DNA from: Lunularia cruciata
Taxonomy: Eukaryota; Streptophyta; Marchantiopsida; Lunulariales; Lunulariaceae
Length of the DNA: 64,000 nt
NCBI GenBank assembly: GCA_948567375.1
Contig: OX419761.1
Span: 21,242,243 to 21,306,242 of the forward strand
Reading direction: 5' to 3'
The first letter of the stretch is position 1, and every line of letters starts with the position of its first letter. Shown here piece by piece: positions 20,090 to 63,615 of this stretch. The notes beneath the pieces were generated by a model. That model worked only from the letters and a program-made list of their open reading frames with translations, was not told where the DNA came from and ran no database searches. The translations under genes were made by a program, and so were the position numbers.

Positions 20090-22291
20090 CTACAAACTAC
20101 ACATGTCAGGATGACAGAAGCATCGCTGGATCTTTTCCCACCTCTCATCCCCAGGCATGCCCTGAAGCATGTCCCGGCCAAAACTGTCTAGCAAGCAGTC
20201 ATCTCCCCCCATGAATACCCAGCCCATTCCTACTCCATCATACACGTACATCTCCACTGTCCCAGCCAAATTTCCTTCAACCCTTGGTCTCACTACATAA
20301 ACACGCAAGATCACGTCTCCTTGGTGGGGTTTAAAAGATGGACCGGTCCCGGGAACTACCACCCAATCTAGCTGCGAGGAATAATTCAAACCAAGGGCTC
20401 TGAGGAGAAGATCTCCTCGGCGAGGCCAGAACTGCCTAACACAGCTTTCTACTTTCTGAATATACCTTTTCCTAAGAGGCACCAAAGAACGATCCCTTTC
20501 TAACAGTCCTACAATCATCCAGCGACAACCTTCTATAAGCTTAAACATCTTAAAATGCTGCCTAAGCTTCCATCCCCCATCAGTAAACTGACCCAACCGG
20601 ATTATCTGATCACCTGGGTGCCAACGATTGTTAAGAGCATCAGCTTCAGTGCAGAAAGCGACATAACCTCTATCCTTGTTGGGATGGCATCTAGGCCTCT
20701 GGGAAAGCACAATATCCCCGGGCTCAGGACCAAAACCAGGACCCACGAATTGTCCCATGGTCTTCGAGAGAACAATCTCTCTCAGATTTGGGTCTCTTAT
20801 GTTTTGAGGGTGGTTACGGTAGGACAAAGACACATTGTTCGCAGTAGGAACTCCTGCAGTCGGCATTTCTGGCTTCAAAGTAAAGGGCTCTTGTCGATAT
20901 TCTGGACGTAAGCCCTGCATGCTATACCAAGGCATATGTGGCCTGGATGTGGTTGGCCACGCCGGGTTTGTAGTGGAAAGTTTAATGTCAGCAGGGCAAG
21001 GACAAGGACATGGGTACTTCTCATTTTTATAATCTACTCTACAGACATGTCCGGGATACTCTGTAGGAACGATGCTTTGCTCATTACAAAGTCCTACTGG
21101 TGGATATCGCAACTGTCCGTATTCAGCACCCCAACCCAACCTAAGCCTTTCTCCACTGAGATTACCTGCATTTACCTGAGGTTCAATTTCAAGTCTCTGT
21201 GATCCTGTCCAACTTCCAAACCTCTTTGTCAAGGTATCTATGTCACAGAGATGTGGATGTGGACTCCAGTTGCTGTATTTCGGACCTGACTCATTTAACT
21301 TCCCCAGGTAAGGATGCACTGTCTGGTATGGATCTCCGTTCCATCTTTCGTCACAATTGATTCGTCGAGTGGAAGCTTCTGGATCGATGTAGTGGGTTTC
21401 TGCTGACTGTGGGTGGTGCTCCATTCTTGCCTCACGAAATACCTCGGGCCACGTGCCGCCGCTTTGGTTTTCCTCAGCTGAAGAGCCGCTTTCAGCAAGA
21501 GCTTCTTCCCGAGGATTCGCAGTGTCAGGCATTCCAATAAATCCAAAAAGACCCTCAGGTAGTGGTTGATAGTAATCTGGACTGGAAGCTGGTGGATCGG
21601 GGGTTTGCCATAGCTTCCCAGCAAGCGTGGCTTCTATCTCCTGCCGAGCAACCCTACTTCTCCATAGCCTGAGTTGGATTCGTCGTCTGCATCGTTCAGG
21701 CGTTTCGACACCACCCACCACAGCTGTGTCATCTAAAGGGCTAGCCAGAATAGAACTTGCATTCCCCTGTCGCGCCATTTGTATCATTGCTGCTGCCGCT
21801 CCTCTTCCACCTGCTCTAGCTCTTTCAATACCTGTATTGACAGCTTCATGAGTATCCCCCTGCATTTTCATCTGTTCTTCTAGGTGCTCTTCGATTGCAA
21901 GCCTCATCTGTCTTTCTTCACCACCGCCACTTGTGGCCTGCTCGTTCTTTCGTTTCTGTTCAAGTAGCTCTCTTAGTCTGTATTGCTGCAAGACCGGCCC
22001 CATATTAGAAACGTGTTGGTCATGATCATAATCTTCGTTTGGAAGGGCTGATCCGAGCCATTCCCCCTGTTCCATCCTTCTGGCTCTTTCCACTTCAGGT
22101 ATCATAGATCCATACTGATTCATGTTCCAGTCATCAACTTGCAAGTTGAAGTATCTCGGGATCTCCTCAGGCATCCTTGCTTGTAATTCCGAATGCTCTT
22201 TCCTCAGGTTCTCTGTCCCTTCACCTGCCCTATGTTCCCACCGAGATGCATTTGGCGGACCCTCTGGTCTTCTCTTACTAGCAGAAGCCAT
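20090..22291 (-). CDS. Single-exon 733-aa protein, family unknown
   Basis: One uninterrupted frame from ATG (22289-22291) to a TAG stop (20090-20092). I do not recognise the family. The N-terminal third (residues 1-220) is highly charged and likely helical or disordered (runs rich in E, R, Q, with AAAAMIQMA near 165 and an arginine-rich stretch near 200). The middle is Pro/Trp/Tyr-rich and includes a CPCPCPC run. The C-terminal third is compact, hydrophobic and Trp-rich, and repeats a short motif four times: EPGDIVLSQ, HPGDQIIRLG, RRGDLLLRALG, HQGDVILRVY, suggesting repeated beta strands. No signal peptide or membrane span. It faces SAP18 tail to tail across 2.2 kb and lies upstream of the large NRPB3-RRM gene's 3' end in the genome. 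Being intronless beside intron-rich genes, it may be an old retrocopy or a lineage-specific gene. Confidence 0.8.
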   Translation of the reverse strand: MASASKRRPEGPPNASRWEHRAGEGTENLRKEHSELQARMPEEIPRYFNLQVDDWNMNQYGSMIPEVERARRMEQGEWLGSALPNEDYDHDQHVSNMGPVLQQYRLRELLEQKRKNEQATSGGGEERQMRLAIEEHLEEQMKMQGDTHEAVNTGIERARAGGRGAAAAMIQMARQGNASSILASPLDDTAVVGGVETPERCRRRIQLRLWRSRVARQEIEATLAGKLWQTPDPPASSPDYYQPLPEGLFGFIGMPDTANPREEALAESGSSAEENQSGGTWPEVFREARMEHHPQSAETHYIDPEASTRRINCDERWNGDPYQTVHPYLGKLNESGPKYSNWSPHPHLCDIDTLTKRFGSWTGSQRLEIEPQVNAGNLSGERLRLGWGAEYGQLRYPPVGLCNEQSIVPTEYPGHVCRVDYKNEKYPCPCPCPADIKLSTTNPAWPTTSRPHMPWYSMQGLRPEYRQEPFTLKPEMPTAGVPTANNVSLSYRNHPQNIRDPNLREIVLSKTMGQFVGPGFGPEPGDIVLSQRPRCHPNKDRGYVAFCTEADALNNRWHPGDQIIRLGQFTDGGWKLRQHFKMFKLIEGCRWMIVGLLERDRSLVPLRKRYIQKVESCVRQFWPRRGDLLLRALGLNYSSQLDWVVVPGTGPSFKPHQGDVILRVYVVRPRVEGNLAGTVEMYVYDGVGMGWVFMGGDDCLLDSFGRDMLQGMPGDERWEKIQRCFCHPDMCSL

Positions 22292-22394
22292 TTTTCACGA
22301 CACTCGTACACGTCCACAGCAGAGCTTGTCTAAGCTCTGTTTGCTAGATCCCCTTCTTCCTCCTCCTCCTCCTCTTTCCTGCATTTCTTTCTTC

Positions 22395-23742: not shown

Positions 23743-26700
23743 TCACCATGTGAAGAAGGTGGGATCTGCACAACAAGTCGAGTAGGACATATCATGAGAT
23801 GAGAAGACAAACAAGTAAAGAACAAAGTTTGGTAAGGAGCAATGGGGCAATCATGAATGTCCATATCTTCACAAGTTACTTACCAGTGCTGTCGATCATC
23901 TCAACATCAGGTGGAGGTAGAGGTGTACCCCAACCAAAACCTCCATCAACATCCATCGCTGTACCAGACCGTGAGGAGTCAGCAACAGGGCCTTCTCGTG
24001 TACTATGTCCTTGTCCAGCCGGGTTTACAATCAGCAGCCTTCCGCCTAGCTCGGAACCATCTAACTGCAAAGCCTTGACCATGGACCCTTCCTCGCTAAA
24101 CTCCACAAAGGCAATCCTGTTTGAGAGCGACGTCCAGAAAAACATAAATATGGATAGAAACAATATCCTCTTGGTAAAAATGACATCTCAGAGCTCCAGC
24201 ACTTTATTTTGGATGATACATCTTCGTCCTGAAATAAGAACGACAGTAAGGAAGTATTTTTTGAATGCCTCTTTTAGTAGGGCAGATTTCTTATATCGAC
24301 TCTATTGGGGCTTAGCTCCATTTTACCTATTTTGTCTCACCCTTGTACTGGTTGATGGGGTCTTCCCATCCTTCGTGTTTCTACGCGGTCGTTCTTAACT
24401 TTTAAATCTCTATTTATACGGTTGAACGTATCTCTTGAGCTGAGAACGCTACTTCTAATTCCGTGAACATACATATCTAGCTCCGGCAATGTTGTTTAGA
24501 TAAGTCTGCATATTGAGTAATAGAATCGGCCTCCCTAGGTCGAATTGATGCACAGAAACTGGGCATGTTGGTAAAGGGACGAAAAGTTACCCTTTGATGT
24601 CTCCGGTATCTCTGTCCGTAGGAAGTCGGATTTCAGAGATTTCCCCACAGGGTGAAAAATGGCTACTGAGAGCTTTCCGAGTCTGCACATAAATACTCAT
24701 GTTAGAATAGAACCCGGCACTGCCACAAAAGAAGCTTTTTAACTTCCCACTAAACACCGAAATATCTGAAGACCAGATAAATTAGAGATCAGGTGGCCCT
24801 CACCAGCTCCTCATTTAGACTTCGGTCAAAACCTTTGGCGAAGACTGTTCTATTATCCCGACTGCCACCGCCAGAATTTAATCCTCCTCCTCCACCACCA
24901 ACTGCAGCAGGTTGGCCGGCCTCATTCACCACTAGATGTCGCCCTTGAAAACTTGACCCGTTAAGCTGGAGAGCACTAGCCAGGCCTCCTACGTTGCCAA
25001 ACTCAATATAGGCAAAACTGGCGCCGAGAACGCCTTTTGGTTAAGAGACTAGTAAATGCATTCACAACTACAAACCAGGGCCTCAAACGGCAGGAGCGGA
25101 AGAACGGTTGGCGGTTAAGGTGGAAGAAAATATCTTGGAGAACAGGAGTGTTTAAATGGTACAGTTGTAAGAGGGGGAGGTGAAGTCATGAAAGAAAATC
25201 TCCTGTGTAGGCTACCAATCCAGTTAAAGACAACCTACTAGCGATCAGAGAAGTTGCAATGTGAAGAATTCAAAGGCGAAGGAAAATTGGCTCCTTCGAC
25301 AATGAACACTCTTGAAACTTTTGGACACTCCTGACAGACATGGTAACAAATTTTAGGAATTAAAGGAGACGACAGCATACCCCTTGATGCCTCCACCGAC
25401 TCTGTCCGTAGGAATGGAGATGTTAACAATTTCACCACATGTAGCAAAGTGCTGTTTCAACCCTTCTCGGATCTGAGAGATACAAGACTTGAATATTCAG
25501 TAATAGAAGCTTTCCTTTCAGTTAACAAATGCATTTGTAATCATAACATCACAAGCACATATAGACAATAGACTATAATTCACCAATAATTATTCTCACC
25601 GAATCCTCAGTCATAGATTTATCAAAGCCTTTCACAAAAGCCTTTTTATCCTGGTCACCTCGACCACCACGCGCACCCCCGCCAAATCCACTGGCGGAGA
25701 AACCTCCGGTTCCACTATATTGACTAGCTCTAACTGCTCCGAACCCACTGGAGCCATCCTTTCCATATCCTGCACCCGCGCCGGATTGTCCTGCCTCGCT
25801 GACTGTGAGCATATATCCCTCCAGTAACGAACCATCTTTCTGAAGGGCGCTTAATGCAGACAGCTTTTCACTAAACTCCACAAAGGCAATACTGCAGAAA
25901 GGAGAGAGTGCCAGTTGCATTATGAGTGAGTGTGGATGTTGTAGACAGGGCTCCCAAGTATATTGAGTGTATGAATATGGAACCCGTTCGTTAGAAACAC
26001 GGTTTAATATCGACTTAATACTGGACCAGACTTGACGATGAATAAGTAGTAAAACCCTCATAACCATCATTCACACCTCCCACGCCTGCCAATTATATAC
26101 TACTGCCAAGTCGGTAGTAAAACTCAAAACGCTGGTGTACGTCACTCGACATAACTAGTAGAAAACTGAAGCCCAGCACTCTATATAAGGTGAACACAGA
26201 CACATGACGAGAAATACTTTTCTTGATTTCATAGAGATGAATAAGGTTGTAAGATATGCGCCAGAAAGAACAGTCGGCGAGAAAAATCACCCTTTAGTCT
26301 CTCCACTGTCTCTGTCGACGGGTACCCGGACGTTGAGTACTTCCCCGCAGTCAGAGAAATGTTCTCCCAGCAGGCGCTGAATCTGTTTGCAAAGAAATAT
26401 GGTAAAGAATTTCCATTTATTACCAAGCAGAAGAGAAATTCTAGCCCGTTTCTTAAAAGTGAAATGAAAGGGAGATTGAAGAACCGGGATTCATACCGCA
26501 TCAACGGCGAGAGACCTGTGGAAACCTTTCACAAACACAGTTTTATCCGTGTTGCCGCGACCACCACGAGAACTACCACCATACCCGCCAGCACTATATC
26601 CTCCTGTACCACCACCTTCTCCAGACGGCTGAATTGACTCATTGACAGCCAATCTATCACCATCTAACTCCGTGCCATTTTTTTTAATGGCGTTTGACAT

Positions 26701-29700
26701 AGAACCCTTGTCTCTAAAGTCCACAAAGGCAATTCTGCAGAGCAGTTGACAGAATAATCATGGACAATGTCAAAACGTAGATTTCCAGCAGTTTCAAAAG
26801 AGATATTTATCAAAAGAGTCACCGTAAAACTAAGGGAAACACTTGCCTAAGCTAGAAACCTACCCCTTTAAATCTCCGCTATCTCTGTCCGTAGGAACTC
26901 GAACGGACATAATGTCACCACAATCGATGAAATGCTCCGTCAGCAGACGTTGTACCTGTAAAAATAGTTCATGAGTTCGAAGACTTGGTGAAGATTATTC
27001 GTTACTAAATCTTATCAGTTTCATCATGAAAACGTACCGTATCGACGCTCTTAGTTTTGTCAAAGCCTCTAACAAAAAGTGTCTTCTCAGAATCACCACG
27101 GCCTTGGCTTCCCTCGCTAAAGCTATCCCCACCACCGAACCCTCCAATGCCCCCACCACTAGGGGGTTGTTGTCCAACTCCTTTCACAACCAAACTCCTT
27201 CCATTCAATTGGTGACCATTCATATTAGTCGCCTTCGACGCAGAATCCACATCCATGAACTCGACAAACGCTATCCTGCAAACAGGGGAGTTCCAACAAT
27301 TAGTAGAGGCAATTCCCCCATGATCTTCTCTATGGAGTTAGCAGTCTCACAGTTCATGCTTATAGACAATTTTTTGCATAGTCCGAAGAGTAGAAAGAAC
27401 ATCAAACAGAACTTCCAAGGTCGTAGTGATTTTGCAACAGTAACAGAAATATGCTAGACGTTCCTGAATTGGAGCCAGGCATCAGACTTGTCTTCAAAGA
27501 TCGTCAACAAGAGAAGAAAAGAACGCAACAGTTAGAAAGAGAGGAAATATCATCAAGCCGTACAAGGAGAAACCATGAGAAGTGCGCAGTCGAAGACATG
27601 TAAAGATACTCACCCTTTTATCTCTCCTAAATCTCTGTCAGTCGGAATGCGCACACTTACCACTTCCCCACAAGAGGCAAAGTGGAGTTTCAATCTGTCG
27701 CGAGTCTGTCAAGCACCGAGGAGAATGACATAAGCTGATGGCTAACGAAACAGCACAAGCGGACAGCAATTTAGACTCAATTTAAATAGTTTAGTTGGTC
27801 ACTGACTCCAAACCCAAACTAAACTCAGATTACTCACCACATCCTCGCCATCGCTTTTATCGAATCCCCTCACAAAAACAGTTTTATAAGGATCTCCTCG
27901 GCCGCGACTTCCTCCACTAAAACCGCCGCCACCACTTTGGCCAGATATATTGACAACCAGTATTTGGCCTTTAACGTCTGTCCCGTTGAGAGCAAGAGCT
28001 GTCGACAAAGACACCTTATCTCCAAACTCCACAAAGGCGATCCTGTAATGTTTAAGCTAGTCAGCAAGAGACTCATCATTAATATGTTAAAGGACACAGA
28101 AGTTTCAATCTTGTATCAGCTGTAACCTTACACTCTCCAAGTCACTAACTCTGAGATTTTAAAACGAAAAATACCCCTTCACGTCTCCACTGTCTCTGTC
28201 CGTTGGTATGCGTATTGACACGATATCACAACCCTCAAAGTGCTCCTTCAGGTTGACTCGAATCTGATGAGAGAATCCAGACATTATTAAATGTCAAGTC
28301 AGATTGAGATTCTAGTGATGTGCTCGAGAAGTGGTTGACAAGTTAAAGTTAGAGGAGGGCTTACTGCATCTTCTCCTTGGTTTTTGTCGAAGCCTCTCAC
28401 AAACAGTGTCTTTTCAGGGTCACCACGACCTCGACTTCCTCCAGTCCCACCATATGCTCCTCCGCCAGCCCCTCCTGCACCTCCTCCTGCGGATCCCGAA
28501 TCATTTACTACTAAACTATGGCCATCACATTCTTGGCCATTCAATTCAATGGCCTTCGTTAGACCTTCTTTCTCGCTGAATTCGATGAAAGCTATCCTGA
28601 AGAAAACAACCCAGCAAGTTTTCGTCAGGATAGGAAAACACGAGTCAGGCAAGAAAACAAACAAGTGAAGGGTGCCGGCTGCTTCTATTCAGACTAATTA
28701 GGTCTCTTCCTAAACGTCAGACAGTTTGTACTTCCATAACCAGAAAAACTGCTTGGATGCAAAGTAGATAAGAGATGCTATTCTGGTTTCTCAAAGGATA
28801 AGTTTGCCATCTTGAATAGGAAAGGGAGGCGAGAGAACCCTTTAATGGATCCAGAGGCTTGATCTGTAGGAATGCGCACTTTGACAACACCGCATTCTTC
28901 AAAGTGCTTCATCAAAGCAGCCCGTATCTGAACAAAAGAATAGAACCACATAAATCACTCCTCAGAGGGAATGGAAAACTTCTTAGGACAAGAATGGTGC
29001 GACAAACATCATATCTCTGGTACAGTGCGGATTTAAACTCACTATCTCTTCATCCTGCTCTTTGTCAAAACCTCGAACAAATGCTGTTTTCCCCGGATCT
29101 CCCCGGCCACGACCACCTGCTCCCCCACCACCGAAACTGCTCCACCCACCAAGTCTTCTACCATCGGTATCTCCGCCACCAAAACTACTCCCTCCAGCGT
29201 TTCCACCAGTAGAAGCTCCCCAAGAAAATCCTCCACCATCCGCCGGTTGGCCCCATGTAAATGTACCTGAAAGAAGATTCTCCACAAGTTATTATAGAAC
29301 ACGCCTCAAAGCGATTTGGAGAAAGGAAGACAACACAAGAAATCCTTTTGGCGTCTGGTCTTTCTCCAAGTACAGAGTCTCCAACTTACCAGCACTGTAA
29401 GTGCTTGTGGTGGTTGCTTGATACGCATTATCCACTCCTCCTCCTCCACCACGCTGGCAGGCTTCATTTACTACTAAACTGCGTCCATTGAACTCTGAAT
29501 TGTTCATCTCTAAAGCTTGAATGAAGGCATCCTTGTCAGCAAATTGAACGTAAGCGAATCTGCGAAACACAACATATAGCTGTCAGATCAGCACTACCAC
29601 TTTATCGAAAACAAGAATGCAGATACCCGGATTCTTTCTTGCAGGTTGCATCCTCATTGTTGGGTAATTGTGTCTACCCTTGTTTAAGCCACACATCCGA

Positions 29701-32700
29701 TATGAGTTTTGGTCTTCATTCTAAGACAGGATAAGAATTGCACAGGTTTCAGAGTCAGATGCATAACGGAGGTAATGCAATAAATGTGCTTCTAACGACC
29801 TAAACCAGATCACAAAGCAGAGGCGGTAGTATACCCCTTACTGCCTCCACTATCTCTGTCTGTGGGCACTCGAACATTAATGACCTCTCCACAGGCAGAA
29901 AAGTGAGTCTTCAGCCCATCTCGAATCTGTAAACGCATATCAACAATAAATATAAGAAAGCAGGTTTGTATAGCCAGGTTTCATGGCAATTATGCCAAGA
30001 CCATGGTTAATACGCCAAACGGTTTCATACCTAACAAACTTCAAACCTGACCAGACACCGTAAAACTCGATGCCTGCTTAAAGCATTTTGTCACTCACCG
30101 AGTTTTCATCATCCGATTTATCAAAACCTTTAACAAAAACTGTTTTGTCGGAATCACCTTTCCCACCACCACCCCCTCCAAAACCTCCAACGCCGCCACT
30201 ACCAACTTGCCCAGACGCATTGATTCTCAGTATTTGGCCATTCACTTCAACCCCATCGAGCTCTACAGCTTTATACATAGAGTCGGTATCACTGAACTCA
30301 ACAAAAGCAATCCTGCATAAGAACACATCACAGAGGAAAATTATATTCAAACTTGAAGAAGCTCTTCTAATCGAAAGGGTTCAGATCTTTACAGATCTAT
30401 GGAAACATCAGATAGGATACAAGTCCAATTAAAAAAGGACTGAACAAAAGAAGTACCCTTTTAAACCACTATTGTCTCTGTCCATCGGAACTCGCATGCT
30501 CAAAATGTCACAGCCAACAAAATGCTCCTTAAGCATGTTTCGTACCTAGAAAACATAAACCAAGAGTTAAATTTGAACAAAAAGAATGTGTTCAAACAGG
30601 TGCGAACACATTTGTCCAGAAGGACAACCGTCTTCCCCAAAACTAGACGTTGGAATTGACTTTCGCTAATAAGAAAAATTCAAAGAGCAGAGAAACCGAA
30701 ACAGAATCTCTGAGGGTCTCACTGAGTCTTCTGACTCGGTCTTGTCGAAGCCCTTTATAAAAGCTGTCTTTTCCGGGTCCCCGCGAGCACCACCACCGCC
30801 TCCACCTCCAAAGCCACCAACTCCTCCACCACCAGGAGGATTCACACTCAAAACCTTCCCGTTTACATCTTGCCCGTCCAGCTCAAGAGCTTTCGACTTT
30901 GAGTTGAAGTCACCGAACTCAATAAAAGCAAATCTATAAACACGAGTAAAAATGAGATGTGGGTAGGAGACGTTGAGAAAAGAGAACCCAATCTGAACAA
31001 CAAATGGGTATATCAGACTCAAAACACATTCCGTACCCTCGTATTTCTCGTGTTTCTCTGTCTGTTGGAACTCGGATGTTGATGATATCACAACCAGCGA
31101 AGTGCTCTGTCAAACTAGCGCGAATCTGCAGAAAGAAATGAGCGTAGTCTCAACATATTGATCACTATCAAATTCTAAAAGAATCAAAATAAAAATGCAT
31201 GTATCTTTGTTAGCAACTGCTAGTGTGGGGAAAGTTAACTTACGGAGTCTTCTGACTGGTCTTTATCAAATCCTCTTACAAAGAGTGTCTTCTCGGGGTC
31301 TCCACGACCACCACTTCCAAAGCCTCCGCCTCCGCCTCCACCTCCACCTCCTCCACCACCTTGCCCCGACGCATTGATCTTCCAGGTCTCCCCGTTAACC
31401 TCTATCCCATCCAGCGCTGTAGCCTTGGACATTGACTCAAAGTCGCTGAACTCCACAAAAGCAATCCTGAAGAAACAAATTCATTCAGCAGACCATCCAA
31501 CCAAAAGGAAGATTTCTTGAATAACCGAGGTGATGTTTTCTGCAGTAAAAGTTCTAGACATCGGGAGAATTCTTTTCCCAGGTTCCAGGTGCCACAGTCT
31601 TTAAAATGAAGTACCTACCCTTTAAATTCACCACTGCCTCTGTTTGTTGGTAGCCGGATATTTATGACATCACAGTCACTAAAGTGCTCCTTTATAGCGC
31701 TCTTTATCTGCATATTTGATTAAAGGCATGTAAGATTCAGCCGCTACCTGCATAGTGTCCAGGGTGCTTGGAACCCATGTTAAAAACATAATTTGCATTC
31801 ATCTAATTTGACTGCGTTATGATATCTATCTCAAGGATTCCCGGAACAAGTTGTTGGAGTCACCAAGTCTTCTGATTGATTTTTATTGAAGCCCCTAACG
31901 AAGGCCGTCTTCTCAGGATCTCCACGGCCACGACCACCACCGCTTCCCCCAGCTCCAAAACTTCCACCATCGAAACCTCCACCACCTCCATCTCCATAGT
32001 CTCCACCTCCACCTCCACTGCCCTGTCCAGAAGGATTTACCACCAAAGTCTGGCCGTTGACTTCTTTCCCATCCAGATCAAGAGCTTTCGACAACGATTC
32101 CATGTCACTCAACTCCACATAAGCAAACCTGCGCAAAAAACAAAGTGTTCAGGGGGAGATAAGATGTACTTTGATATTTGGAACTCGAAGCTCTTAAGAG
32201 ATTCCAGGGCGTTGCCTTGAGTGAATTTATCATACCCTTTGATTTCTCCACTGTCTCGGACAGTAACGATGCGGATGTTAGTAACGTCACATTCACCGAA
32301 ATGCGTCATCAAACTAGTCCGAATCTGTACAGCAGACAGGGTAGTTAGTTCAGTTCTCAACCCACCTTCTTGAACACTACAATTAGCCACGAGTATATTG
32401 TTCGTGGACGTCCAATCCAGATCCTGAGCCTCACCTCATCTTCCCCTTGGTTTTTATCAAAACCTCTTACATATACAGTCTTCTCAGGGTCGCCCCGACC
32501 GCGACCAACTCCAATACCCGCACCACCTCCTCCAGGCATATTTACGACCAAAGTCATTCCATTTCTTTCTACTCCATTCAGCTCAGTAGCTTTGGATACA
32601 GAGTCGAAGTTGCTAAATTCCACAAAGGCAATACTGTCCCACAAAGAAAGCCCACATCGTAAGCATCATTACATGGAGGTTGCGACTGATTTGTTAACTT

Positions 32701-35111
32701 TCCGACAGTTTCTGTTCCTAATTACTGACGTTCATAATAAGGTAGTGAATATACCCTTTGATTTCTCCAGTTTCTTTGTCTGTAGGAATTCTGATGTTGA
32801 CGATGTCACAATCGGCAAAGTGTTCCTTCAAGCTGTTTCGGATCTGCAGAGTAAATCAACGAGCCAGTAATAATACATTGAGTACAAGTAGTACTTAAAG
32901 TTCACTGATATCTCGCAAAGAGATACTGGAACTGAACGATAGTCTGAAGCCTTACCGTGTCTTCATCGTCCGAACTCTCAAAACCCTTAACAAAGAGTGT
33001 CTTCTCGGGATCACCACGACCACGACCACGACCCCCACTCCGACCATCTCCTCCACCACCTTGTCCAGCCGCATTTATAGTCAAACAAACACCATCCTTC
33101 TCATGTTGACTTAGCTCTATAGCTTTGGACATAGATTCAGTATCACCAAACTCAACGAAAGCAATTCTGGCCACAGAAGAGTGCAAACAGGGCTTTAATA
33201 CATGCGCCAACGTTTCATTGCCTTCTGATAATCTTGAGTCTTCTGAACACCGGCCTACAAACATAAGTACTTCAACTTACCCCAACGTGCAAGGATCCAT
33301 TTAACTACAACCATGAAGGTGAAGTGAAATGACATGACACACAACACGAACTCTCAGCTAGTTCATTTCAGGTGTCCGAGTCACAGCTCCCAATCTAAGA
33401 TCATTAAGATGGTAAGGGTGGAGGACACCCCCGAGAAGGGAAGGCATTAGTAAATTCCGAAGGTATGATTCCCTTGGATAAGCTCTATGCGTACTAATGG
33501 ATAGAGAAGCAGCTATTGAGAGACTCTTAATTAGACGTGCTATAACTAGCGTCAAGCTCTCAACAAGACACCTCTATCTACCCAATATAACAGAAGATAA
33601 GAGAAGGCTCTCACTGGAACAACTTTCACACAGTACGAATCTTCGCAAGGGATGCTCTTCATACCAGCAGACAAGATATAATACAAAATGTCAAGGGGTA
33701 TGTTCATGCTGTTGGTAAACTACAACAGGCATCCAACAAAGGCGGAGACACATACCCTTTGATTTCACCACTATCCTTGTCTGTAGGTATCCGAATTTTG
33801 ACAATTTCACATCCTTCGAAGTGTGTTTGCAACATACTCCGGATCTGATTGGAATCCAGTAATCTACCGTCATTATATCATTAACCGTAGCATGAACTCG
33901 GAGTTGCCAACCTTAATGTAAATAATCAAAGAAAAAACTCAGCCAAATCAGACGTTGAAACCATACCGTTTCTTCATCCTGGTCTTTATCAAAACCTTTT
34001 ATAAATACTGTCTTATCAGGGTCACCGCGATTACCACTCCCTCCTCCGCCACCACCACCACTTCCTCCTTGGCCAGCTTCATTGACCACAAGAGTTTGTC
34101 CATTGAAGTTTGTATCATTGAGCTCAAGGGCCTTTTCCAGCCCTTCTCTCTCTCTAAACGCGATGTACGCAAACCTGAGAGTAAAGGAACCAATTGTTCA
34201 GGAGATGTGTCAACCCCGCAAGTTAACCCATATACATTCCTGGATAAATGCACTTCTGATCTCGGCAAATGACATTAGGAAGTTATAATGCACAAAGTGT
34301 ACGCTTTAAGTTCTCATCAATCTGAGTAAAGAAGTTAGTTGAATTCCTTGAGACGTCTTAAATTCTACACTTTTAGGTCTCATCAGTCTGAATTAATGGT
34401 TTGTTGCACTCCTTAAAGAGATTCATATTGTGCTGTCAACATCAATCATAGTTAAAAGTTTGTTACACACGACGACGTCGACGCCATTACGAAAGAAGTG
34501 GTATGCAAGAATACGACTTGGTCTAGAGAGACGTTCTAAGACGTGAGGAGCACAAAAAGAGCCAAAAGAGCAGGTTTCTTGGGGTTTGACACCTTCCGAG
34601 ACATGATTTGCAAAGGTTAGACGATGAACGATGTTATGGAGTATGGCTTGTATTATGTCAAAAGTAGCTAATCAACTACCAATTTTCCAGCTAAATGAAG
34701 GAGGAAACAAAACGTAGAAAACACAGAGTGTTTGTGTGAAGTTCAAACCCTTTAATCTCCTGCGTATCTTTGTCGGTAGGAACACGAACGCTAAGGATTA
34801 CGCCACATGAGGCAAAGTGCTTTCTCAGAGCGTCTCTTATCTGCAAGGCAAACAACATTTAATTGCTTACTATTCCCAAGATATGACTCGTTATACCGTG
34901 TGAATGGAAGCTCGAAACTGAAGCTTGCAATCATCATAATCCCTGTATCGTATTTGCGTACTATTTTTCAATTCTCTAGAGAGCGTGCTAAGAACAATGT
35001 ACCGCATTTTCGCCCTGATTTTTGTCAAAACCTTTAACGAATGCCGTCTTGTCAGGATCTCCTTTCTCGGCTGCTTTTCGGTCGTTAGCCTGTTGTATAC
35101 GTCTCTCTTTC
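23743..35111 (-). other. Array of fifteen nucleolin-type RRMs with glycine-rich linkers
   Basis: Each RRM has RNP2 (TLFVRGF, TVFVKGF and similar), a helix ending HFxxCGE, a PTDRDSGEIKG loop, and RNP1 (KG-[FI]-A-[FY]-V-E-F). Short exons (helix 1 to loop): 34749-34840, 33756-33844, 32755-32843, 32236-32324, 31619-31707, 31037-31125, 30457-30545, 29835-29926, 28839-28927, 28175-28263, 27614-27705, 26864-26955, 26291-26382, 25381-25472, 24591-24682. Long exons (RNP1, Gly linker, next RNP2): 33967-34174, 32956-33166, 32435-32633, 31864-32128, 31244-31466, 30723-30933, 30099-30312, 29390-29559 with 29043-29266, 28365-28596, 27838-28042, 27038-27275, 26497-26734, 25600-25891, 24804-25017, then 23884-24116 and 23743-23765. 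The motifs most resemble the second RRM of plant nucleolin. No RGG tail is present. Confidence 0.9.
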
Positions 35112-37067
35112 CTGGATAAAAGTTTTCCATCACATAGTCGCAAGGATACATAAGTTAATCGACAGGATAAGTTAACCGATTGGTATGCAATCGTCTTTGC
35201 TGTTATATTCAAACAGAACTATCATTCAAAAACAAGTCGAAAGAAATGAACAGATTGTCCTTGAATACAATGTGATGCTGGCCAACAATTCAGCTTGAGC
35301 TTCTACTCAACCTGAGTTGGGAGGGAGGAACTTACATCTTGTTAGCTTTAGCGCGCTCTACCTGGATCATGATTTCTTCTTCATTTTCTGTCATGTCACG
35401 CTCCTCAGGATTTTGGAGTGCCAGTAGTTTGCTTTGTAGTATCTCCAATGCATTATAAAATACTGACGAGGCCGATAGAGCTCCAGTAGACTCCACTGTG
35501 AAAATGACACAATCCTCCCTGCGAACAACTTCGACAAGACCTGGTTTCCCCATGGCCTCCGCTTTCTTCAAGATACCCTCATCGTAGGTATATGCTTCGG
35601 CGTCCACCACTTTCACCTGCAAGACCAATTACTCCGAATTTGATATGTGCTACGTGCATGAAAAAATCTGTATAAACTTGACAATCTAGGACACAGACCC
35701 CTTCCTTCTGTCCTAATGAACGCTCAGTAAGTTTAACTTTCCTTCCATAATGCCTCATGTAAAACCTGCAACACTATATTCACTCCATACGTTAATTCTG
35801 ATTTCCAACCACACGTAACTGCTGACCACTCAACCAAAGAGAAAACTGAATCACCTCTTCGGTAAGTGGGTCAATCATGAAAACTGGTGTGGGATTGCTT
35901 GCAACCCATTCTCTCTTTTGCGTCAAAGTCAAGGTTCTCATGAGAGTCTCATTTATGAATATTTGTGGCTCGTAATGCATAGAAACAGTTGCTGCTGGGG
36001 ACCATTTCGCATGAAATTTCCCTATTCCTTTCCTGGCAATGGCCCGAAGCTTGATCTCTTGTCCACGCTTCAATTTAGCAATCAGTATGCCCCTGCACAT
36101 CATACGAGCCGACTGTATGTGAGCCTGCTTCTTGACCTGACTACGCTTTCTTGACAAAGACTACCAACAGTACTCATTCTACAGCAAGCTCCTCGGGCAT
36201 TTGACTGGAAATGAAGGTTGGGTGACAGAGTCTCACTGCTCCTTCTTTCCGTCTTCGGTTTCCTTCTTTCCATCTTCTTCCATCGGTTTAACTTCATCCC
36301 CGTCGAACTCAGTATGGTGGTCACAGTTCTTCCTCTTCGAGAAAATAGGGTGAACTTCGTCATCAGAAGACCGAAGGTGATCGCTCGTTACAACCAGTGT
36401 CTGGGCCGATGTGCACTTAACGTCTAAGGTGAAGGACACTGAGCAGTCACTGCAACTGCACAAATTGCGCAACCAATATGTTATAGAGCGCCTATTCTTC
36501 TAGGTAGAGGATCAAAGCCTCGAATATCCACCTTTAGGAAGAGAGTACGCCTCCTAGATGCCTCTCCAGTGTTATATCTGGCCAGAGTGATTCTCCATCA
36601 TAAACTTTCGTTGGTAAAAATAAACCTTGTTCAAAGAAAACGTACCAGTTCTCCCCTTCACAGTCGGGGCACTCATGGGGGAAGCGCATTTCCTTCGCCT
36701 TCTCACTTATAATGGGAATGAGGCCCAGACGATGTGCAAGGAACTCATCATCCAGAACCGAGGTGTTCACCTCAATGAAGATCAAGTCGATCGCCAAAGT
36801 GGGGACCTCGGCGAGCATAATTCGCCGAAGACCGTTGGAAACACTGGGATCAGTGCCCCTCAACTCGAGCTTCAAAAAATCATCTCTAACCTCCCGAACT
36901 CGAATTTCTGAATTCCGTTGATACGAGGGCCTGGCGTCCCTAGGTTCGTCGGAGCCATGTTGGTCAGCGTGCTGCCCATCCTCCATGAAACCCCCTTCAG
37001 AGGCATCGTGGCAACCAGTTTCAACCGCATCCATGGGCTGGTCATCGCTTACAGAATCTCCCCACAT
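23743..37067 (-). CDS. NRPB3-15xRRM fusion: Pol II subunit 3 joined to a nucleolin-type RRM array, about 2,074 aa
   Basis: Thirty-seven exons, all with GT-AG introns, join in one frame. Exons 1-4 (36646-37067, 36237-36455, 35855-36092, 35336-35616) encode a complete Pol II subunit 3. Exon 5 (35003-35111) continues with a charged linker into the first RNP2 motif, and 32 further exons encode fifteen RRMs and a short tail ending DPTFFTW. The ATG at 37065 is the first in the frame. Exon 5 has no start codon of its own; it opens after an acceptor, and the phase-2 donor of exon 4 fits it exactly. Family knowledge: RPB3 pairs with RPB11 in the Pol II assembly platform; nucleolin-type RRMs bind RNA. 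The fusion itself is inferred from splice signals and frame. The alternative is two transcripts sharing the locus. Confidence 0.8.
35333..37067 (-). other. NRPB3: NRPB3 module of the fusion gene (residues 1-387)
   Basis: Residues 1-50 are an extra acidic leader. Then come the alpha-like dimerisation motifs (NGLRRIMLAEVPTLAIDLI, LDDEFLAHRLGLIPI), and a zinc ribbon made across intron 1 with the plant spacing C-x2-C-x5-C-x2-C (CPDC ... CSDC). After an acidic Glu/Lys-rich insert come KLKRGQEIKLRAIARKGIGK, HAKWSPAATV, DPLTEE and DAEAYTYDE, then the final helix. All residues expected for folding appear present. If the exon 4 donor is ignored, the codons after AAC AAG are ATG TAA, giving a 387-residue protein of usual NRPB3 length plus the N-terminal leader. 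So the locus can encode a normal subunit without the array. Confidence 0.9.
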
Positions 37068-46573: not shown

Positions 46574-47717
46574 TTATATCGTGATCAGCGGATCAGTTAC
46601 AAGAGCCCCCCACCAGGACTCATCATCGTCATGCAGTGGAGATACGGGCGGCCTTGCAACAACCTGTGTGTCTTGGATGCCTTCGGTCATGCTAGGCATA
46701 ATCCTGGTATCTTTTTCGTCCGTTGATGCATCAAGCTGCTGGGTTGGAGATTCAACATATTTGATTATAGCTGGCTGCGTAGTGGTGGAATCAGACCCCT
46801 GCGTGGGAGTTGCACTTAAGCCGTCAGTATCCATTTCGGGGTTTGTGTCCTCCATCTTGTAGATGACTACTTTCCAAAGACAAGCCTTGGCCGCGTGGCC
46901 TTTATCCTTCAGGGAGTACTGATGAAGAACCCATTTCTTGGGCCTATCATCTTTTGCTGATGTATCACGCTTCTTCCCTCTGGACTTCTTTTGGTAGGTG
47001 AAATATCTCGTTTCCAGAGTTCTGGCTCTCTTCCTTGGATGTGGACAACCAGTCTGTTTCCAGCTATGGCCTTCCTTTGTATGCCTGGAACATGTTTGCT
47101 GCTTGGTGGTGACTGCCAAGAAATACCTGGGCTTGGGTTCTATGATCAAGAACACGGACAAAAATAAACGTGTAAGTCAATCAAAACATCTTATACTCAC
47201 GGATACGGGGTAGTTACTAGCCAGTCAGAACATCTTTCATCAAGCAGATAATTTATACCAATTAAACTTGGTATCTAGTACTGAGTCCAGTTCCTTGAAC
47301 ACAGTATCAGCATGAATCACATAACCTCCCCGAAAACTTAACGGTCTCAAATGCATTAGTGCTGAATATACGTGACCTTGCGTTACAGAGAAAAAAGGAC
47401 AAATGGTACTCATCAATGGAACTTACCTGTCAGGAGTTCCCAAGGATGATAGTCATAGATGTTTGCCCCTTGATAGATGTTCAAAGACGACTTGGCTCTG
47501 TAAAACCAGGGCTGCTTAATTGAAGTCTCTTGGCTGAGCGCCGTCTGAACACCTTCCAAGAAATTGTTTAGCTGAAATTCTGGGATTTTTTCTTCAAATC
47601 CACTGTGGCCGAGGTGATCTTCCCTAGACAGACTCTGGATATTTCTTGGCTCGTTGGCTCCAGAGGGTTTTTCCTCCTGCCGACAAACCACAGTTGACCT
47701 GGTCAAGAATTCAGCTC
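46574..47717 (-). CDS. Divergent NAC-domain protein, last two exons
   Basis: Exons 47427-47717 and 46574-47139 join through a GT-AG intron in frame. Across the join the protein shows NAC landmarks: IYDYHPWELL (subdomain B-like), then PRYFLAV, WKQTG (usual WKATG), WVLHQYSL (usual WVMHEYRL) and CLWKVVIYK. Family knowledge: NAC proteins are plant-specific dimeric transcription factors with a WRKY/GCM-like DNA-binding fold. The remaining about 95 residues form an acidic, Ser/Thr/Pro-rich tail, typical of an activation region. The first exon here has no start codon and begins after an acceptor, so at least one upstream exon is missing; subdomain A (the GFRFHPTDEEL region) is not visible. It may be a NAC-like gene with a reduced N-terminus, and is likely functional because splice frame and motifs are kept. 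Confidence 0.75.
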
Positions 47718-48117: not shown

Positions 48118-48837
48118 CTAAAAGATGTCACTCCCTAACTCAAAGTTAAGAACAAGGAGAAAGCACTTGGTTCTAGAAGTGGAAAGTACCGCTTCAGAGC
48201 TTGGAGAAGAGCTTGGACGACGAACCATGTCCCAGTCACTGAAATTTGGACCCGAATCCGGGTCTGGATAAGAGTGAGTTTCTTCAGAATTTCTTTTACG
48301 CGCCAATTTCGATCGCAGTTTGGCTCTGAAGCCTTCCGCAGCTGCAGCTTCTTTGGCATGCCTGAAGCCGCAGTAGTCATGAATTCTCTCATTTTCCACA
48401 TAGACATGACGATAGCAGCCTTCCATCTTGCAAATTCGTCCCAATTCATGATATCTTGCAGTTGATATCTTTATATACTCTAGAACATGCGATTTCCCAC
48501 AGAAATCGTGAACTCTACCAGATGACTTATCAATCCTCACTGGCTTAGAGCATTCTGGTAATTTGCACGTGTTTCGTCCCATCTTTGCGCCTTGGACCGA
48601 GGATGCATGTAAGTATGCCGTATACATGTCATGGTGCATTATCCCACAAAATCGGTGGAATTTTCCAGGCGACGACTCCCATCCACGACTAGCGCATCCG
48701 GGGAACTCACAACCAGGTTTTTTACTTATCTGCAAATGGCCACCAGAATGAGCACGTTTGCAGGGACTTAACGGGGACTTAGGCGCACTCTCCTCGCAGT
48801 GTGCGCAATGCGTCCCGGCAGAGGATGATCCGTACAT
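48118..48837 (-). CDS. Protein with three C-x4-C...H-x-[FY]-C-x3-H repeats, possible first exon of the NAC-like gene
   Basis: The frame opens at ATG 48835-48837. Three repeats follow: CEFPGC with HRFCGIMH, CKLPECSKPV with GRVHDFCGKSH, and CKMEGCYRHV with RIHDYCGFRH. Each places two Cys, then His, Cys and His as a likely zinc site. Two extra Cys (CAHC) lie near the start. I cannot give the family a name; similar short Cys/His units occur in assorted plant, algal and fungal proteins. A basic stretch (KLRSKLARKR) follows. As drawn it runs to a stop at 48118, but several GT donors (48146-48200) could splice it to the NAC-like exon 400 bp downstream; only a weak phase-1 donor fits the frame. So it is either a 239-aa protein or the N-terminus of a zinc-repeat/NAC fusion. 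Confidence 0.65.
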   Translation of the reverse strand: MYGSSSAGTHCAHCEESAPKSPLSPCKRAHSGGHLQISKKPGCEFPGCASRGWESSPGKFHRFCGIMHHDMYTAYLHASSVQGAKMGRNTCKLPECSKPVRIDKSSGRVHDFCGKSHVLEYIKISTARYHELGRICKMEGCYRHVYVENERIHDYCGFRHAKEAAAAEGFRAKLRSKLARKRNSEETHSYPDPDSGPNFSDWDMVRRPSSSPSSEAVLSTSRTKCFLLVLNFELGSDIF

Positions 48838-50800
48838 CGGAATTTCGTTCCTCCGTACCTTCTCCCTAAATATTGCTACTAGTATATGACGATAAATGCA
48901 CGGATCCAGGTCATTGAGTTGTCCCTTCCATCATTCTTAGCTTCTAATCCCAATTATCCTCCCGTTGAGATTCAAGCAGCCGTTGATCTCTATATCAGAG
49001 ATGCAGCTTGCAAATCGCGCTGTTTCCAGGTCCCTAAACCCAAATCACTTACTCGAGAATCTGCTGGAAAAGACTTCAGATAGTGACAGGGAAGGATGGA
49101 AATGTGAAGTGTGCCAGAGGAGAAATTCGGGGAGACTAATAAGTTGGTAGAAACAAATGCGGTCCACTGGCCATTGTTGACAATTACAAGAAGGCAAACA
49201 ACTTTTTGCCCCTGGTGATATTGAAGGGACAGAAAGAAGGTTCGCACACTTCCCTTTGCATGTTAAGTCCCTGTAGACTCAGGGGAAAGCGAAGGGTCTG
49301 TCTAAGCAGATAGTGACCAAGGCAGGACTGACATCTCCCAGATAGCTTGGTATGAAATCCTCGGATTGGACAACTTCCAGAGAAAAAGACTCTGCTACAC
49401 TATTGAACACTAAAAGCCCGACAAAGAACAAAACATGACGGGAAGTCCAGTGCTTCAATCCATTGTTACATAGAGTAATAGACAAGTAAAAAGTCCAAAC
49501 CACAGGGGGTCTTCACTTGAGATCTGCGCCTAGTGATACATATGCACACAATACATGTATGAGCTGACTAGCGGGTTGTGGATTCTGAGGAGGTGTAGCT
49601 TGCAAATCTACAGGAGATCGTCATGCAATAACTTGCAGTTCGTACTGAATCAGGTCCGGCAACGGAAGACTTCGAGAACACAAAAGAATGTGTGGTTTTC
49701 AGGTATCTGAGCGTGTTAAGGACATGATCCAACTCCCAGGAATCTGGCAGGCGGTTTCTCGTCTTTCGACTCCGTCCTTGAGAGAAACCGGTGCAATCCA
49801 ACTACTCAATACCAGTTCTGATGGGACAAGGCAGATCCTGGACCGTTCCGACTTTCAGCACTGGGCCGTAAAACACAGGCGCTCGTCTAGAAAGGGATGA
49901 TAGGGGGCACCCAACCACGATACAAGTTCAACTGGACTCGAAAGGAAACAAGACCAGCTAGGCGAAAGGCGCAGAATTACACGGTAGGGTTCGTGAGGTC
50001 ACCTAGCCATGATCCGCTCCTGCTTCTGTTTGCTGGAAATTGTAGAGCTGATGATCGCAAGCGATGATTCGCTGTGTTCACTGCATCGTATTGTCTAGAG
50101 GAAAGAGGGAGAAGAAAACCTAGGGAAATGCATCAAAGCAGTGCACTCTGCTGCCCAACTTCAACTGAAAGCTTACAATCTAGTGCACCAGCACCTCTCT
50201 TTCATTACAGAAAAGCTGCACATCAGATGGACACCTGCTAACCACAACGCTCCCGCTCCAGCCGCGCTCAAACGTAGAGGCAAATTCCTGCTTCGAAAGA
50301 GTTATTATGGTGCTCAAGTCTCTTTCACGAAGCGCTGCTAGTATTGTTTTTAGGTTCAATTCAGCTGTCTGCGGCATCCCCCGCATCTCTCACCACTATG
50401 TTATAGGACTCTCGACGACTTGAGAATGATGACTCTAATGCTCACTGTAAGATTTCAAAGTAGTCCTTATTGAGATTCTGTACAGATTCGGAGATTTTCC
50501 TGCAATTTCTAGTACTGTATACTGTAGAATGCGGATCCTTTCCCGAATCTAAGCCTTATTACGAAAACACATCGCTTTCTCGCGCTTTTCCTCCAAGTTC
50601 CACTGTATATTCCAGCCCTCGAAAATTTCTAATGCTGTAACAGTAGTTCTTGGGATCATGACTTCAGGAATCCAGAGTCCTGGCTCAAACATTTGATCAT
50701 TACAACAGTCAAGTGACCAAGCCTTGCTATACAAGTTGCAGCGGACGAAGATCTACTTGTCAGTTCCTCAGGAGCTCCTCAGAGAGTACAGAGAGTATAA
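48838..50800. other. Upstream flank, no gene recognised
   Basis: The composition resembles the gene regions rather than the AT-rich flanks. Open frames on both strands at 49568-49900 and 50141-50386 show no family motif and no convincing splice structure. It may contain the promoter of the minus-strand zinc-repeat gene. Confidence 0.5.
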
Positions 50801-60297: not shown

Positions 60298-60995
60298 TTA
60301 AGACGCAACATCCTTGTTGTGCAATTGTTGCTCAAATGCTTGCACCAACACCAATGCATGTGTCAAATTGGCAACGGGCTCCCATGTTGCTTCATAGAGG
60401 AGGTAACCTTTCCATTGTACTAGATAGTCCACCCACGGATGGCGAGTACCACGCATGCATTTTAGGAGAATACGCTCCACTTCATATTCCTCTGTGCCAT
60501 CAATGAGTGTCGGACAAGGTCGAATGTCTTGTGTGGAATGACCTTGGCCTGCTCGGGAAGCATATCTACGTAATAGGGAAACATGGAACACTGGATGGAT
60601 CTTCATGTGTGGTGGTAGCTCAAGGTGATAGGCCACAACACCAACGTGACAAAGAATCAAGAAAGGCCTAATAAAACGAAGTTTGAGCTTACAAGGTCCA
60701 ACTAATGTGAGGTTGGTTGTTGATAGCCACACTTGATTCCCAACACTGAACTCCATGTGCCTACGGTGTGCATCAACATACAACTTTTGTCAATTTTGTG
60801 CAATTTGTAATTTGTGCTTGGCGCTCTCCACAGCTTGTTGGATTCTAGAAACAAATATGTTGACTTCATCGACCTTGGTAGCCACTGGATGGATCTTCAT
60901 CAAGCTAGAAGGTGTGAAGAGATGCTCACCATACATGAGAAAGAACGGAGTAACCTAGGTGGATGCATTCACTGAATTGTTATAAGCAAATTCCA
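60298..60995 (-). pseudogene. Chromovirus integrase C-terminus and chromodomain, cut by an LTR
   Basis: The minus frame 60298-60783 reads integrase C-terminal motifs (FSVGNQVWLST, HPVFHVSLLRRY) and a chromodomain (VDYLVQWKGYLLYEATWEPVANL). Upstream, 60784-60995 continues the integrase (LVEFAYNNSVNAS, FFLMYG) with stops. It is broken at 60995-61000 by the inserted plus-strand element and no upstream part is seen, as the window ends inside that element. Confidence 0.9.
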
Positions 60996-62610: not shown

Positions 62611-62623
62611 ACCTACTAGGAGC

Positions 62624-63259: not shown

Positions 63260-63615
63260 ATCAAGCCGATTGCACAAGAACAATCTGAGGAGGGCCAGGT
63301 GCCGCATCAAGCAACGGTTGATCAGATAGTTCAGGAGTTTGCAGATGTGTTTCCTGATGATCTGCCAAAGGGATTACCCTCTGATTGAGGTATGCCCTTC
63401 AAGATCGAGTTATTGCCAGGGAGTACTCCAGTGAGTAGACCAATCTATTGGCTCTCACCAAAGGAGTTGGAGGAGTTGCAAACAACACTTACAGAGTTGT
63501 TGGAGAAGGATTTCATACGACATAGTACCTCTCCGTGGGGATACTATACTATTTGTTCCAAAGAAGGATGGAGGACTTCATTTTTGTATTGATTACCGTG
63601 GGCTCAATAAGCAAA
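63260..63615 (+). pseudogene. gypsy reverse transcriptase N-terminus, truncated
   Basis: MPFKIELLPGSTPVSRPIYW and a LLEKDFIRHSTSPWG stretch are followed by a frameshift into VPKKDG and CIDYRGLNKQTVKN. A TGA sits where RT normally has an Arg just before GMPF. The homology stops near 63615. Confidence 0.85.

What the first reader, a model, noticed from the sequence alone, without database searches (positions are those of the whole stretch)
23743..37067. RNA polymerase II subunit 3 fused in frame to fifteen nucleolin-type RRMs
Four exons give a complete NRPB3. The donor of exon 4 (AAGAT|GTAAGT, phase 2) fits an acceptor at 35111 that opens a linker exon leading straight into RNP2 of the first RRM. 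From there every one of 32 further exons joins in frame, to about 2,074 residues. The RRM part has no start codon of its own. I know of no plant or animal RPB3 with an RNA-binding tail, and no known protein with fifteen nucleolin-type RRMs. It could tether nascent RNA to the Pol II core or act as a neofunctionalised copy.
Basis: partly seen in the sequence, partly recalled or inferred. Interest (0 to 1): 0.93.

Follow-up and report, generated by a model that had tools for sequence, protein, structure and literature searches.

The report
Liverwort polymerase subunit carrying fifteen RNA-binding domains
In liverworts a spare copy of a core RNA polymerase subunit is joined, in one gene, to a long row of RNA-binding domains copied from nucleolin, which suggests a form of polymerase that carries its own RNA-holding tail.

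Summary
On the minus strand, 37067-23743, 37 exons joined by 36 GT-AG introns read unbroken through 2,074 residues: a complete RPB3, a charged linker, then 15 RRMs. Database proteins from three named liverworts (Riccia fluitans, Calypogeia fissa, Marchantia polymorpha) carry the same fusion, and a 70-residue stretch across the junction aligns without a gap in window, Marchantia and Riccia. The same genome also holds an ordinary, unfused RPB3 on another contig with the same three intron positions and phases, so the fused gene is a diverged duplicate. Its own nucleolin gene is cut inside RRM2 at the same places and phases as the RRMs of the array. The gene looks like an RPB3 copy spliced onto the 3' half of nucleolin, with RRM2 then multiplied. 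Best mechanism (inferred): a subunit-3 paralogue of Pol II or Pol IV/V that tethers RNA. I had no transcript or protein data, the junction donor is weak by the gene's own matrix, and my paper searches listed nothing on it.

The parts
36646..37067 (-). exon 1 (RPB3; start ATG at 37067)
   Evidence: in-frame stop 7 codons upstream
36237..36455 (-). exon 2 (RPB3 insert domain, last zinc cysteines)
   Evidence: acceptor corrected from 36449
35855..36092 (-). exon 3 (RPB3)
35336..35616 (-). exon 4 (RPB3 C-terminal part; donor AAGAT|GTAAGT, phase 2)
35112..35335 (-). intron 4, the RPB3/RRM junction (224 bases, phase 2)
35003..35111 (-). exon 5, charged linker and RNP2 of RRM1; counterpart of the nucleolin exon upstream of RRM2
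34749..34840 (-). exon 6 (RRM1 middle)
33967..34174 (-). exon 7 (RRM1 end, Gly-rich linker, RRM2 start)
33756..33844 (-). exon 8 (RRM2 middle)
32956..33166 (-). exon 9 (RRM2 end, linker, RRM3 start)
32755..32843 (-). exon 10 (RRM3 middle)
32435..32633 (-). exon 11 (RRM3 end, linker, RRM4 start)
32236..32324 (-). exon 12 (RRM4 middle)
31864..32128 (-). exon 13 (RRM4 end, linker, RRM5 start)
31619..31707 (-). exon 14 (RRM5 middle)
31244..31466 (-). exon 15 (RRM5 end, linker, RRM6 start)
31037..31125 (-). exon 16 (RRM6 middle)
30723..30933 (-). exon 17 (RRM6 end, linker, RRM7 start)
30457..30545 (-). exon 18 (RRM7 middle)
30099..30312 (-). exon 19 (RRM7 end, linker, RRM8 start)
29835..29926 (-). 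exon 20 (RRM8 middle)
29390..29559 (-). exon 21 (RRM8 end; extra phase-1 intron follows)
29043..29266 (-). exon 22 (FTWG-containing linker, RRM9 start)
28839..28927 (-). exon 23 (RRM9 middle)
28365..28596 (-). exon 24 (RRM9 end, linker, RRM10 start)
28175..28263 (-). exon 25 (RRM10 middle)
27838..28042 (-). exon 26 (RRM10 end, linker, RRM11 start)
27614..27705 (-). exon 27 (RRM11 middle)
27038..27275 (-). exon 28 (RRM11 end, linker, RRM12 start)
26864..26955 (-). exon 29 (RRM12 middle)
26497..26734 (-). exon 30 (RRM12 end, linker, RRM13 start)
26291..26382 (-). exon 31 (RRM13 middle)
25600..25891 (-). exon 32 (RRM13 end, linker, RRM14 start)
25381..25472 (-). exon 33 (RRM14 middle)
24804..25017 (-). 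exon 34 (RRM14 end, linker, RRM15 start)
24591..24682 (-). exon 35 (RRM15 middle)
23884..24116 (-). exon 36 (RRM15 end, acidic/Trp tail; phase-1 intron follows)
23743..23765 (-). exon 37 (last codons DPTFFTW and stop TGA); similar tail DPEFFTW in Riccia

Best explanation
One gene encodes one protein: a duplicated, diverged third-largest subunit of the Pol II family (RPB3/NRPB3-like) joined by a charged, predicted-helical linker to 15 nucleolin-RRM2-type RNA-binding domains. Shown by sequence: the open frame, the orthologous gene models in other liverworts, the second unfused RPB3, and the nucleolin-type exon structure of the array. Inferred: the RPB3 part assembles with RPB11 into a Pol II, Pol IV or Pol V core in place of ordinary RPB3. 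The RRM row then works as a multivalent leash that holds nascent or scaffold RNA at the polymerase, much as the bacterial alpha subunit, RPB3's homologue, carries a tethered nucleic-acid-binding C-terminal domain (this comparison is recalled). Origin, inferred: exon 4 of an RPB3 copy was joined through a phase-2 intron to the 3' half of a nucleolin gene (RRM2, Gly-rich tail, last exon), and the RRM2 exons were then tandemly duplicated.
For: Single frame over 37 exons with 36 GT-AG introns. Fused relatives P0121 (13 RRMs), P0122 (11) and P0123 (1,043 aa, 5 RRM matches over 50 bits, the last cut off) are the only 3 of 242 listed proteins with both RPB3 and RRM matches (the lists were capped at 120 of 524 and 120 of 162). 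The junction is ungapped over 70 residues in three species; of the 16 linker residues after it, Marchantia and Riccia each share 11 with the window. The four fused RPB3s form one clade, 100/98. The window's RPB3 keeps 83 of 97 near-invariant RPB3 columns, no gaps; the other three keep 84, 85 and 87. The four zinc cysteines are kept. The Marchantia relative's model matches Pol IV/V subunit 3 at TM 0.87-0.90 by target length, with helices 353-381 and 383-414 running towards RRM1 (low confidence there). Array RRMs match nucleolin RRM2 (moss 111 bits, RRM1 36). Own nucleolin RRM2 is 47-66% identical to the 15 RRMs, with the same intron positions and phases. Ten of 15 window RRMs pair with Riccia RRMs in order. 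The RNP2 aromatic and the RNP1 position-5 aromatic are kept in 15 of 15.
Against: No RNA or protein evidence for the spanning transcript; the relatives are database gene models whose support I did not see. The junction donor is weak by the gene's own matrix (35th of 36). The RNP1 position-3 aromatic is kept in only 5 of 15 RRMs, so RNA affinity may be reduced or altered. The linker helix of the Marchantia model has pLDDT below 50 at 378-381 and 383-386. Nothing shows that the fused RPB3 is in a polymerase, or which one. Its divergence (57.8% identity to unfused Riccia RPB3, against 88.2% between two unfused liverwort RPB3s) could mean it has left the enzyme.
Confidence: 0.55

Rival explanations
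1. Two adjacent genes (an RPB3 paralogue ending at the TAA after AAG ATG, and a nucleolin-like RRM gene with its own start), wrongly joined by reading and by annotators.
For: In-frame TAA sits exactly at the junction donor, and that donor ranks 35th of 36 by the gene's matrix.
Against: No ATG in the linker frame up to the nearest stop and only 224 bases between them; the linker is conserved in length and sequence on both sides of the junction in three species; three separate liverwort gene models are fused.
Confidence: 0.04
2. The protein left the polymerase: the RPB3 part now serves only as a docking or RPB11-binding module of a free, nucleolin-like multi-RRM RNA chaperone or assembly regulator.
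For: Long stem and faster change than unfused RPB3; an ordinary RPB3 is still present to serve Pol II.
Against: 83 of 97 near-invariant core columns and all four zinc cysteines kept, with an intact predicted fold in the Marchantia relative.
Confidence: 0.2
3. Specifically the subunit 3 of a Pol IV/Pol V-type enzyme, giving it RNA binding and possibly Argonaute-hook (WG/GW) contacts.
For: Flowering plants have a Pol IV/V-labelled subunit 3B (PDB name 8hyj_C); Marchantia is reported to encode POLIV, POLVa and POLVb (PMC9516144 passage); tryptophans in the N terminus and linkers lie next to glycine in 5 of 6 cases in the window and in Riccia (shuffle fractions 0.047 and 0.024); a WG near a start Met recurs in the four proteins and FTWG in window and Riccia.
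Against: The Trp-Gly excess is marginal and not seen in Calypogeia (5 of 9, 0.47) or Marchantia (1 of 1, 0.23); I could not check the Pol IV/V largest subunits in this genome.
Confidence: 0.3
4. One gene, two products: retention of intron 4 gives a 387-residue RPB3-like protein and splicing gives the fused protein.
For: The donor itself encodes the stop (ATG|TAA) in the window.
Against: No transcript data; an ordinary RPB3 gene already exists.
Confidence: 0.15

Closest known systems
RPB3/NRPB3 (subunit 3 of Pol II, IV and V; homologue of archaeal Rpo3/D and bacterial alpha NTD)
   Same: PF01000 and PF01193, zinc cysteine quartet, core fold (on the Marchantia relative), three intron positions shared with the genome's own unfused RPB3
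   Different: longer acidic N terminus and acidic insert, altered C-terminal tail, and a row of 15 RRMs
Plant nucleolin, RRM2 and Gly-rich tail
   Same: 47-66% identity to own nucleolin RRM2, identical intron positions and phases inside the RRM, phase-1 last intron before a short last exon
   Different: no acidic/serine N-terminal region, no RRM1, RRM2 present 15 times, few RGG motifs (3 in the linkers), RPB3 at the N terminus
Fused liverwort proteins R1flu_012146 (Riccia fluitans), AXG93_3719s1430 (Marchantia polymorpha) and an unnamed Calypogeia fissa protein
   Same: same architecture; collinear RRMs with Riccia; nearly the same tail in Riccia
   Different: 13, at least 5 and 11 RRMs; Marchantia model is shorter and looks cut off; unnamed or 'hypothetical' in the databases
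Bacterial RNA polymerase alpha subunit with its tethered C-terminal domain (recalled, not tested)
   Same: RPB3-type subunit with a nucleic-acid-binding module on a C-terminal linker
   Different: unrelated domain, RNA-binding type, many copies

Membership tests
RPB3 / RpoA-D family | insert and dimerisation domains (PF01000, PF01193) | tested here: met
   65.3 and 57.8 bits against cut-offs of 33.9 and 24
RPB3 / RpoA-D family | C-x2-C-x5-C-x2-C zinc site of plant RPB3 | tested here: met
   window with exon 2 from 36455; the four cysteines are invariant in an alignment of 12 relatives, three of them fused
RPB3 / RpoA-D family | subunit-3 fold | tested here: met
   only on the Marchantia relative P0123: TM 0.89 to 8him_C by target length; model mean pLDDT 66.5
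RPB3 / RpoA-D family | assembly with RPB11, RPB10, RPB12 into a polymerase | not testable with these tools
   needs purification
Nucleolin | nucleolin-type RRM2 | tested here: met
   best-scoring solved chain is nucleolin 9cb5
Nucleolin | N-terminal acidic/serine region and RRM1 | tested here: not met
   N terminus is RPB3; all 15 repeats score 101 bits or more with the array model, whereas the RRM1s of the plant nucleolins printed score 23-37
Nucleolin | RGG-rich C-terminal GAR domain | tested here: not met
   N terminus plus linkers are 39% Gly but the linkers hold 3 RGG; own nucleolin C exon is RGG-rich by eye
Pol IV/V-specific subunit 3 | found in Pol IV/V and not Pol II | not testable with these tools
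   no interaction data; PF11523 genome search did not complete
Argonaute-hook (WG/GW) proteins | excess of Trp next to Gly in disordered parts | tested here: inconclusive
   shuffle fractions 0.047 window, 0.024 Riccia, 0.23 Marchantia, 0.47 Calypogeia

The most novel reading that the evidence does not exclude
Liverworts have a distinct nuclear RNA polymerase variant whose third subunit carries a built-in, multivalent RNA-binding leash taken from nucleolin, a eukaryotic counterpart in design to the bacterial alpha C-terminal domain, possibly specific to Pol IV/V-type silencing. It is an old liverwort invention whose RRM order has been kept between the window's species and Riccia.
Probability: 0.4. 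Interest if true: 0.92.

Novelty: new variant of a known kind. Interest (0 to 1): 0.84.

Why it matters
Core RNA polymerase subunits are very conserved, and I know of none (recall) that has gained an RNA-binding array. Here it appears to have happened once, by a traceable route (RPB3 duplicate plus nucleolin exons), and it is found in three named liverwort genera besides the window. Marchantia polymorpha is a genetic model, so the question whether a polymerase can use a built-in RNA leash can be tested by deletion and by truncation of the array.

Tried and rejected
Exon 2 acceptor at 36449 was rejected for 36455, because Riccia has the two extra residues and the cysteine spacing fits. The protein searches had been run with, or with parts of, the 2,072-residue model; searches used parts outside exon 2. 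A 5' exon inside or before intron 4 was looked for: 8 ATG..GT phase-2 pairs exist between 35800 and 35172; 3 of them end at the exon 4 donor itself and the other 5 have poor donors by eye. A regular expression for RNP1 picked up RNP2 for nearly all repeats; its RNP1 line is discarded and replaced. The Marchantia row is cut short because a false RRM match (-3.6 bits) was taken as its first RRM; one search replaces it. One search ended in an error after printing the figures I use. A first line also failed (a file not yet written) without effect on its results. C11:43734000-43743900 was fetched as a possible nucleolin and looks like another, SR-type RRM protein. Alignment A1 was made and not used. 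The paper search for RRM counts returned unrelated papers and is uninformative. The Argonaute-hook idea is kept only as a weak rival. Whether the duplication postdates the liverwort ancestor is open: grouping fused and unfused liverwort copies is not rejected (AU p 0.39).
Full report
What is there. The minus strand from 37067 to 23743 carries 37 exons that join in one frame to 2,074 residues. Exons 1-4 encode a whole RPB3 with its insert and dimerisation domains and the zinc cysteine quartet. Exon 5 is a charged linker that runs into the RNP2 strand of the first RRM. A model built from the repeats finds 15 RRMs, each at 101 bits or more (these are the sequences the model was built from). Pfam RRM_1 independently matches the two RRMs in the 586-residue piece that I scanned. 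Every RRM is split by a phase-0 intron after the first strand and a phase-2 intron before the RNP1 strand; the only departures are one extra phase-1 intron between RRM8 and RRM9 and a phase-1 last intron. All 36 introns are GT-AG.

Is it one protein? The direct signs are the matched phase (2 to 2), the absence of any ATG in the linker frame upstream of exon 5 up to the nearest stop, and the 224-base gap. The junction acceptor is ordinary (19th of 36), but the donor is weak by the gene's own matrix (35th of 36) and includes an in-frame TAA. The decisive evidence is comparative. A full-length query, with words from residues 385-1384, found two proteins, of 1,886 and 1,652 residues, in Riccia fluitans and Calypogeia fissa. 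A shorter RRM query found one of 1,043 residues in Marchantia polymorpha. All three carry an RPB3. Of the 242 proteins listed by the three searches they are the only three with both parts; the lists showed 120 of 524, 2 of 2 and 120 of 162 hits, each search scored only about 8,000 candidates, and each is limited by protein length. So absence from mosses, hornworts or ferns is not shown. In the window, Marchantia and Riccia a 70-residue stretch spanning the junction aligns without gaps: 20 of 26 (Marchantia) and 15 of 26 (Riccia) residues before the junction, and 11 of 16 in each after it, are identical to the window. Calypogeia has a different, shorter linker here. Riccia has Ile where the window and Marchantia have Met at the split codon, which a phase-2 intron there would allow (inference). 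I have not seen transcript support for any of these models.

A duplicate, not the only RPB3. The genome (565.8 Mb, 74 contigs) gave nine matches to an unfused RPB3: four exons of one ordinary RPB3 gene on contig 7, four in the window, and one weak. The contig 7 gene has 4 exons and 323 residues, with a stop in exon 4. Its three introns have the same positions and phases (2, 2, 0) as introns 1-3 of the fused gene, so the copy arose at the DNA level and not through a retrocopy (inference). In trees the four fused RPB3 parts form one clade (100/98) on a long stem (0.52), while unfused liverwort RPB3s have short branches. Placing the fused clade with the unfused liverwort copies is not rejected (AU p 0.39), so the date of the duplication is open. 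The window's copy lies with Riccia and Marchantia, apart from Calypogeia, so the source is probably a complex thalloid liverwort (inference; no species name was given). The weak match on contig 8 (32.7 bits) is probably the Pol I/III homologue (recalled, not checked). No fused Riccia sorocarpa protein appeared in the lists, although its unfused RPB3 did (P0007); whether it lacks the fusion or the model is broken was not tested.

Where the RRMs come from. Moss nucleolin RRM2 scores 111 bits against the array model and its RRM1 36 bits. The genome's own nucleolin on contig 1 has, around RRM2, an exon starting in phase 2 (read from the frame; the donor before it was not checked), a phase-0 intron after EDS, a 92-base middle exon, a phase-2 intron inside the Gly codon before FAYVEF, and a phase-1 last intron before a 29-base last coding exon. 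The fused gene repeats this plan for each RRM: middle exons are 89 or 92 bases, and a phase-1 last intron precedes a 23-base last exon. The Calypogeia C terminus (KATFFSWD) resembles the nucleolin end (KKTTFGDD) at 4 of 8 positions by eye. The simplest history is an RPB3 copy joined through a phase-2 intron to the 3' half of nucleolin, followed by tandem duplication of the RRM2 exons. In the RRM tree, ten of the 15 window repeats pair with Riccia repeats in order, as sister pairs or within three-row groups that also hold a Marchantia or nucleolin row (1-1, 2-2, 5-5, 6-6, 8-8, 9-9, 11-10, 13-11, 14-12, 15-13); window 3, 4, 7, 10 and 12 do not pair one to one with Riccia. Most Calypogeia repeats stand apart or group together, so the array may have expanded or been homogenised separately in that lineage. 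The tree has 77 columns for 49 rows and many open forks, some pairs have modest support, and one Hevea nucleolin RRM fell beside RRM14, so the array is not shown to be one clade apart from all nucleolins.

How it probably works. Shown: the RPB3 core keeps 83 of 97 near-invariant columns (97% or more in 91 unfused rows, those of 315-350 residues among hits P0001-P0109). The Marchantia relative is predicted with the subunit-3 fold (TM 0.89 to Pol V subunit 3 by target length) and with two long helices bridging to RRM1 (blocks there at pLDDT 51-67, below 50 at 378-381 and 383-386). RNP2 keeps its aromatic in 15 of 15 RRMs and RNP1 position 5 in 15 of 15, but RNP1 position 3 is aromatic in only 5 of 15. 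Inferred: the protein takes the subunit-3 place in a Pol II-type enzyme and holds RNA near it. Which enzyme is unknown. [quoted passage not shown] PMC5320500 (passages) reports crosslinks of NRPE3A with NRPE1 and NRPE2 in Arabidopsis Pol V. Trp-Gly motifs give weak support for an Argonaute contact.

Known or new. Paper searches with RPB3, NRPD3, NRPE1, NRPE3, RRM, nucleolin, liverwort, moss and Marchantia terms (uninformative) listed no paper on such a protein by title or abstract start (one search listed 20 of 37). I saw listings, and passages only of PMC7714444 (one line of its references), PMC5569507, PMC5320500, PMC9516144, PMC11094948 and PMC12513226. The library holds only part of the literature. 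The proteins sit in databases as hypothetical or unnamed. The parts are known; the combination is a new variant of the RPB3 family. Confidence that it is one fused gene: about 0.95. Confidence in the polymerase-bound RNA leash: 0.55.

Noticed in passing
window 20090-22294 (-): An uninterrupted 734-codon open frame just downstream of the fused gene, without any Pfam match; not identified.
   Followed up: partly
window 60298-60789 (-), 62573-63259 (+), 63435-63953 (+): Ty3/gypsy-like remnants: chromodomain with Tf2-1 SH3, gag-type aspartyl protease, and a zinc knuckle just below its cut-off.
   Followed up: no
window 48118-48930 (-): 270-codon open frame with three repeats of a Cys/His pattern ending FCGxxH or YCGxxH and no Pfam match.
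   Followed up: no
window 46574-47176 (-): Weak, below cut-off NAM-domain match (20.8 against 27 bits).
   Followed up: no
window 35332-35337 (-): ATG TAA across the exon 4 end: the stop of an unspliced form lies inside the junction donor, so intron retention would yield a complete RPB3-only protein of 387 residues.
   Followed up: partly
window 29267-29389 and 23766-23883 (-): The extra intron between RRM8 and RRM9 and the last intron are both phase 1, and both are followed by Thr/Phe/Trp-rich starts (TFTW, DPTFFTW); they may be two copies of nucleolin's terminal intron.
   Followed up: partly
protein P0123 (Marchantia polymorpha): The model ends inside an RRM and its second RRM is interrupted by what looks like retained intron sequence; the true protein is probably longer.
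   Followed up: no
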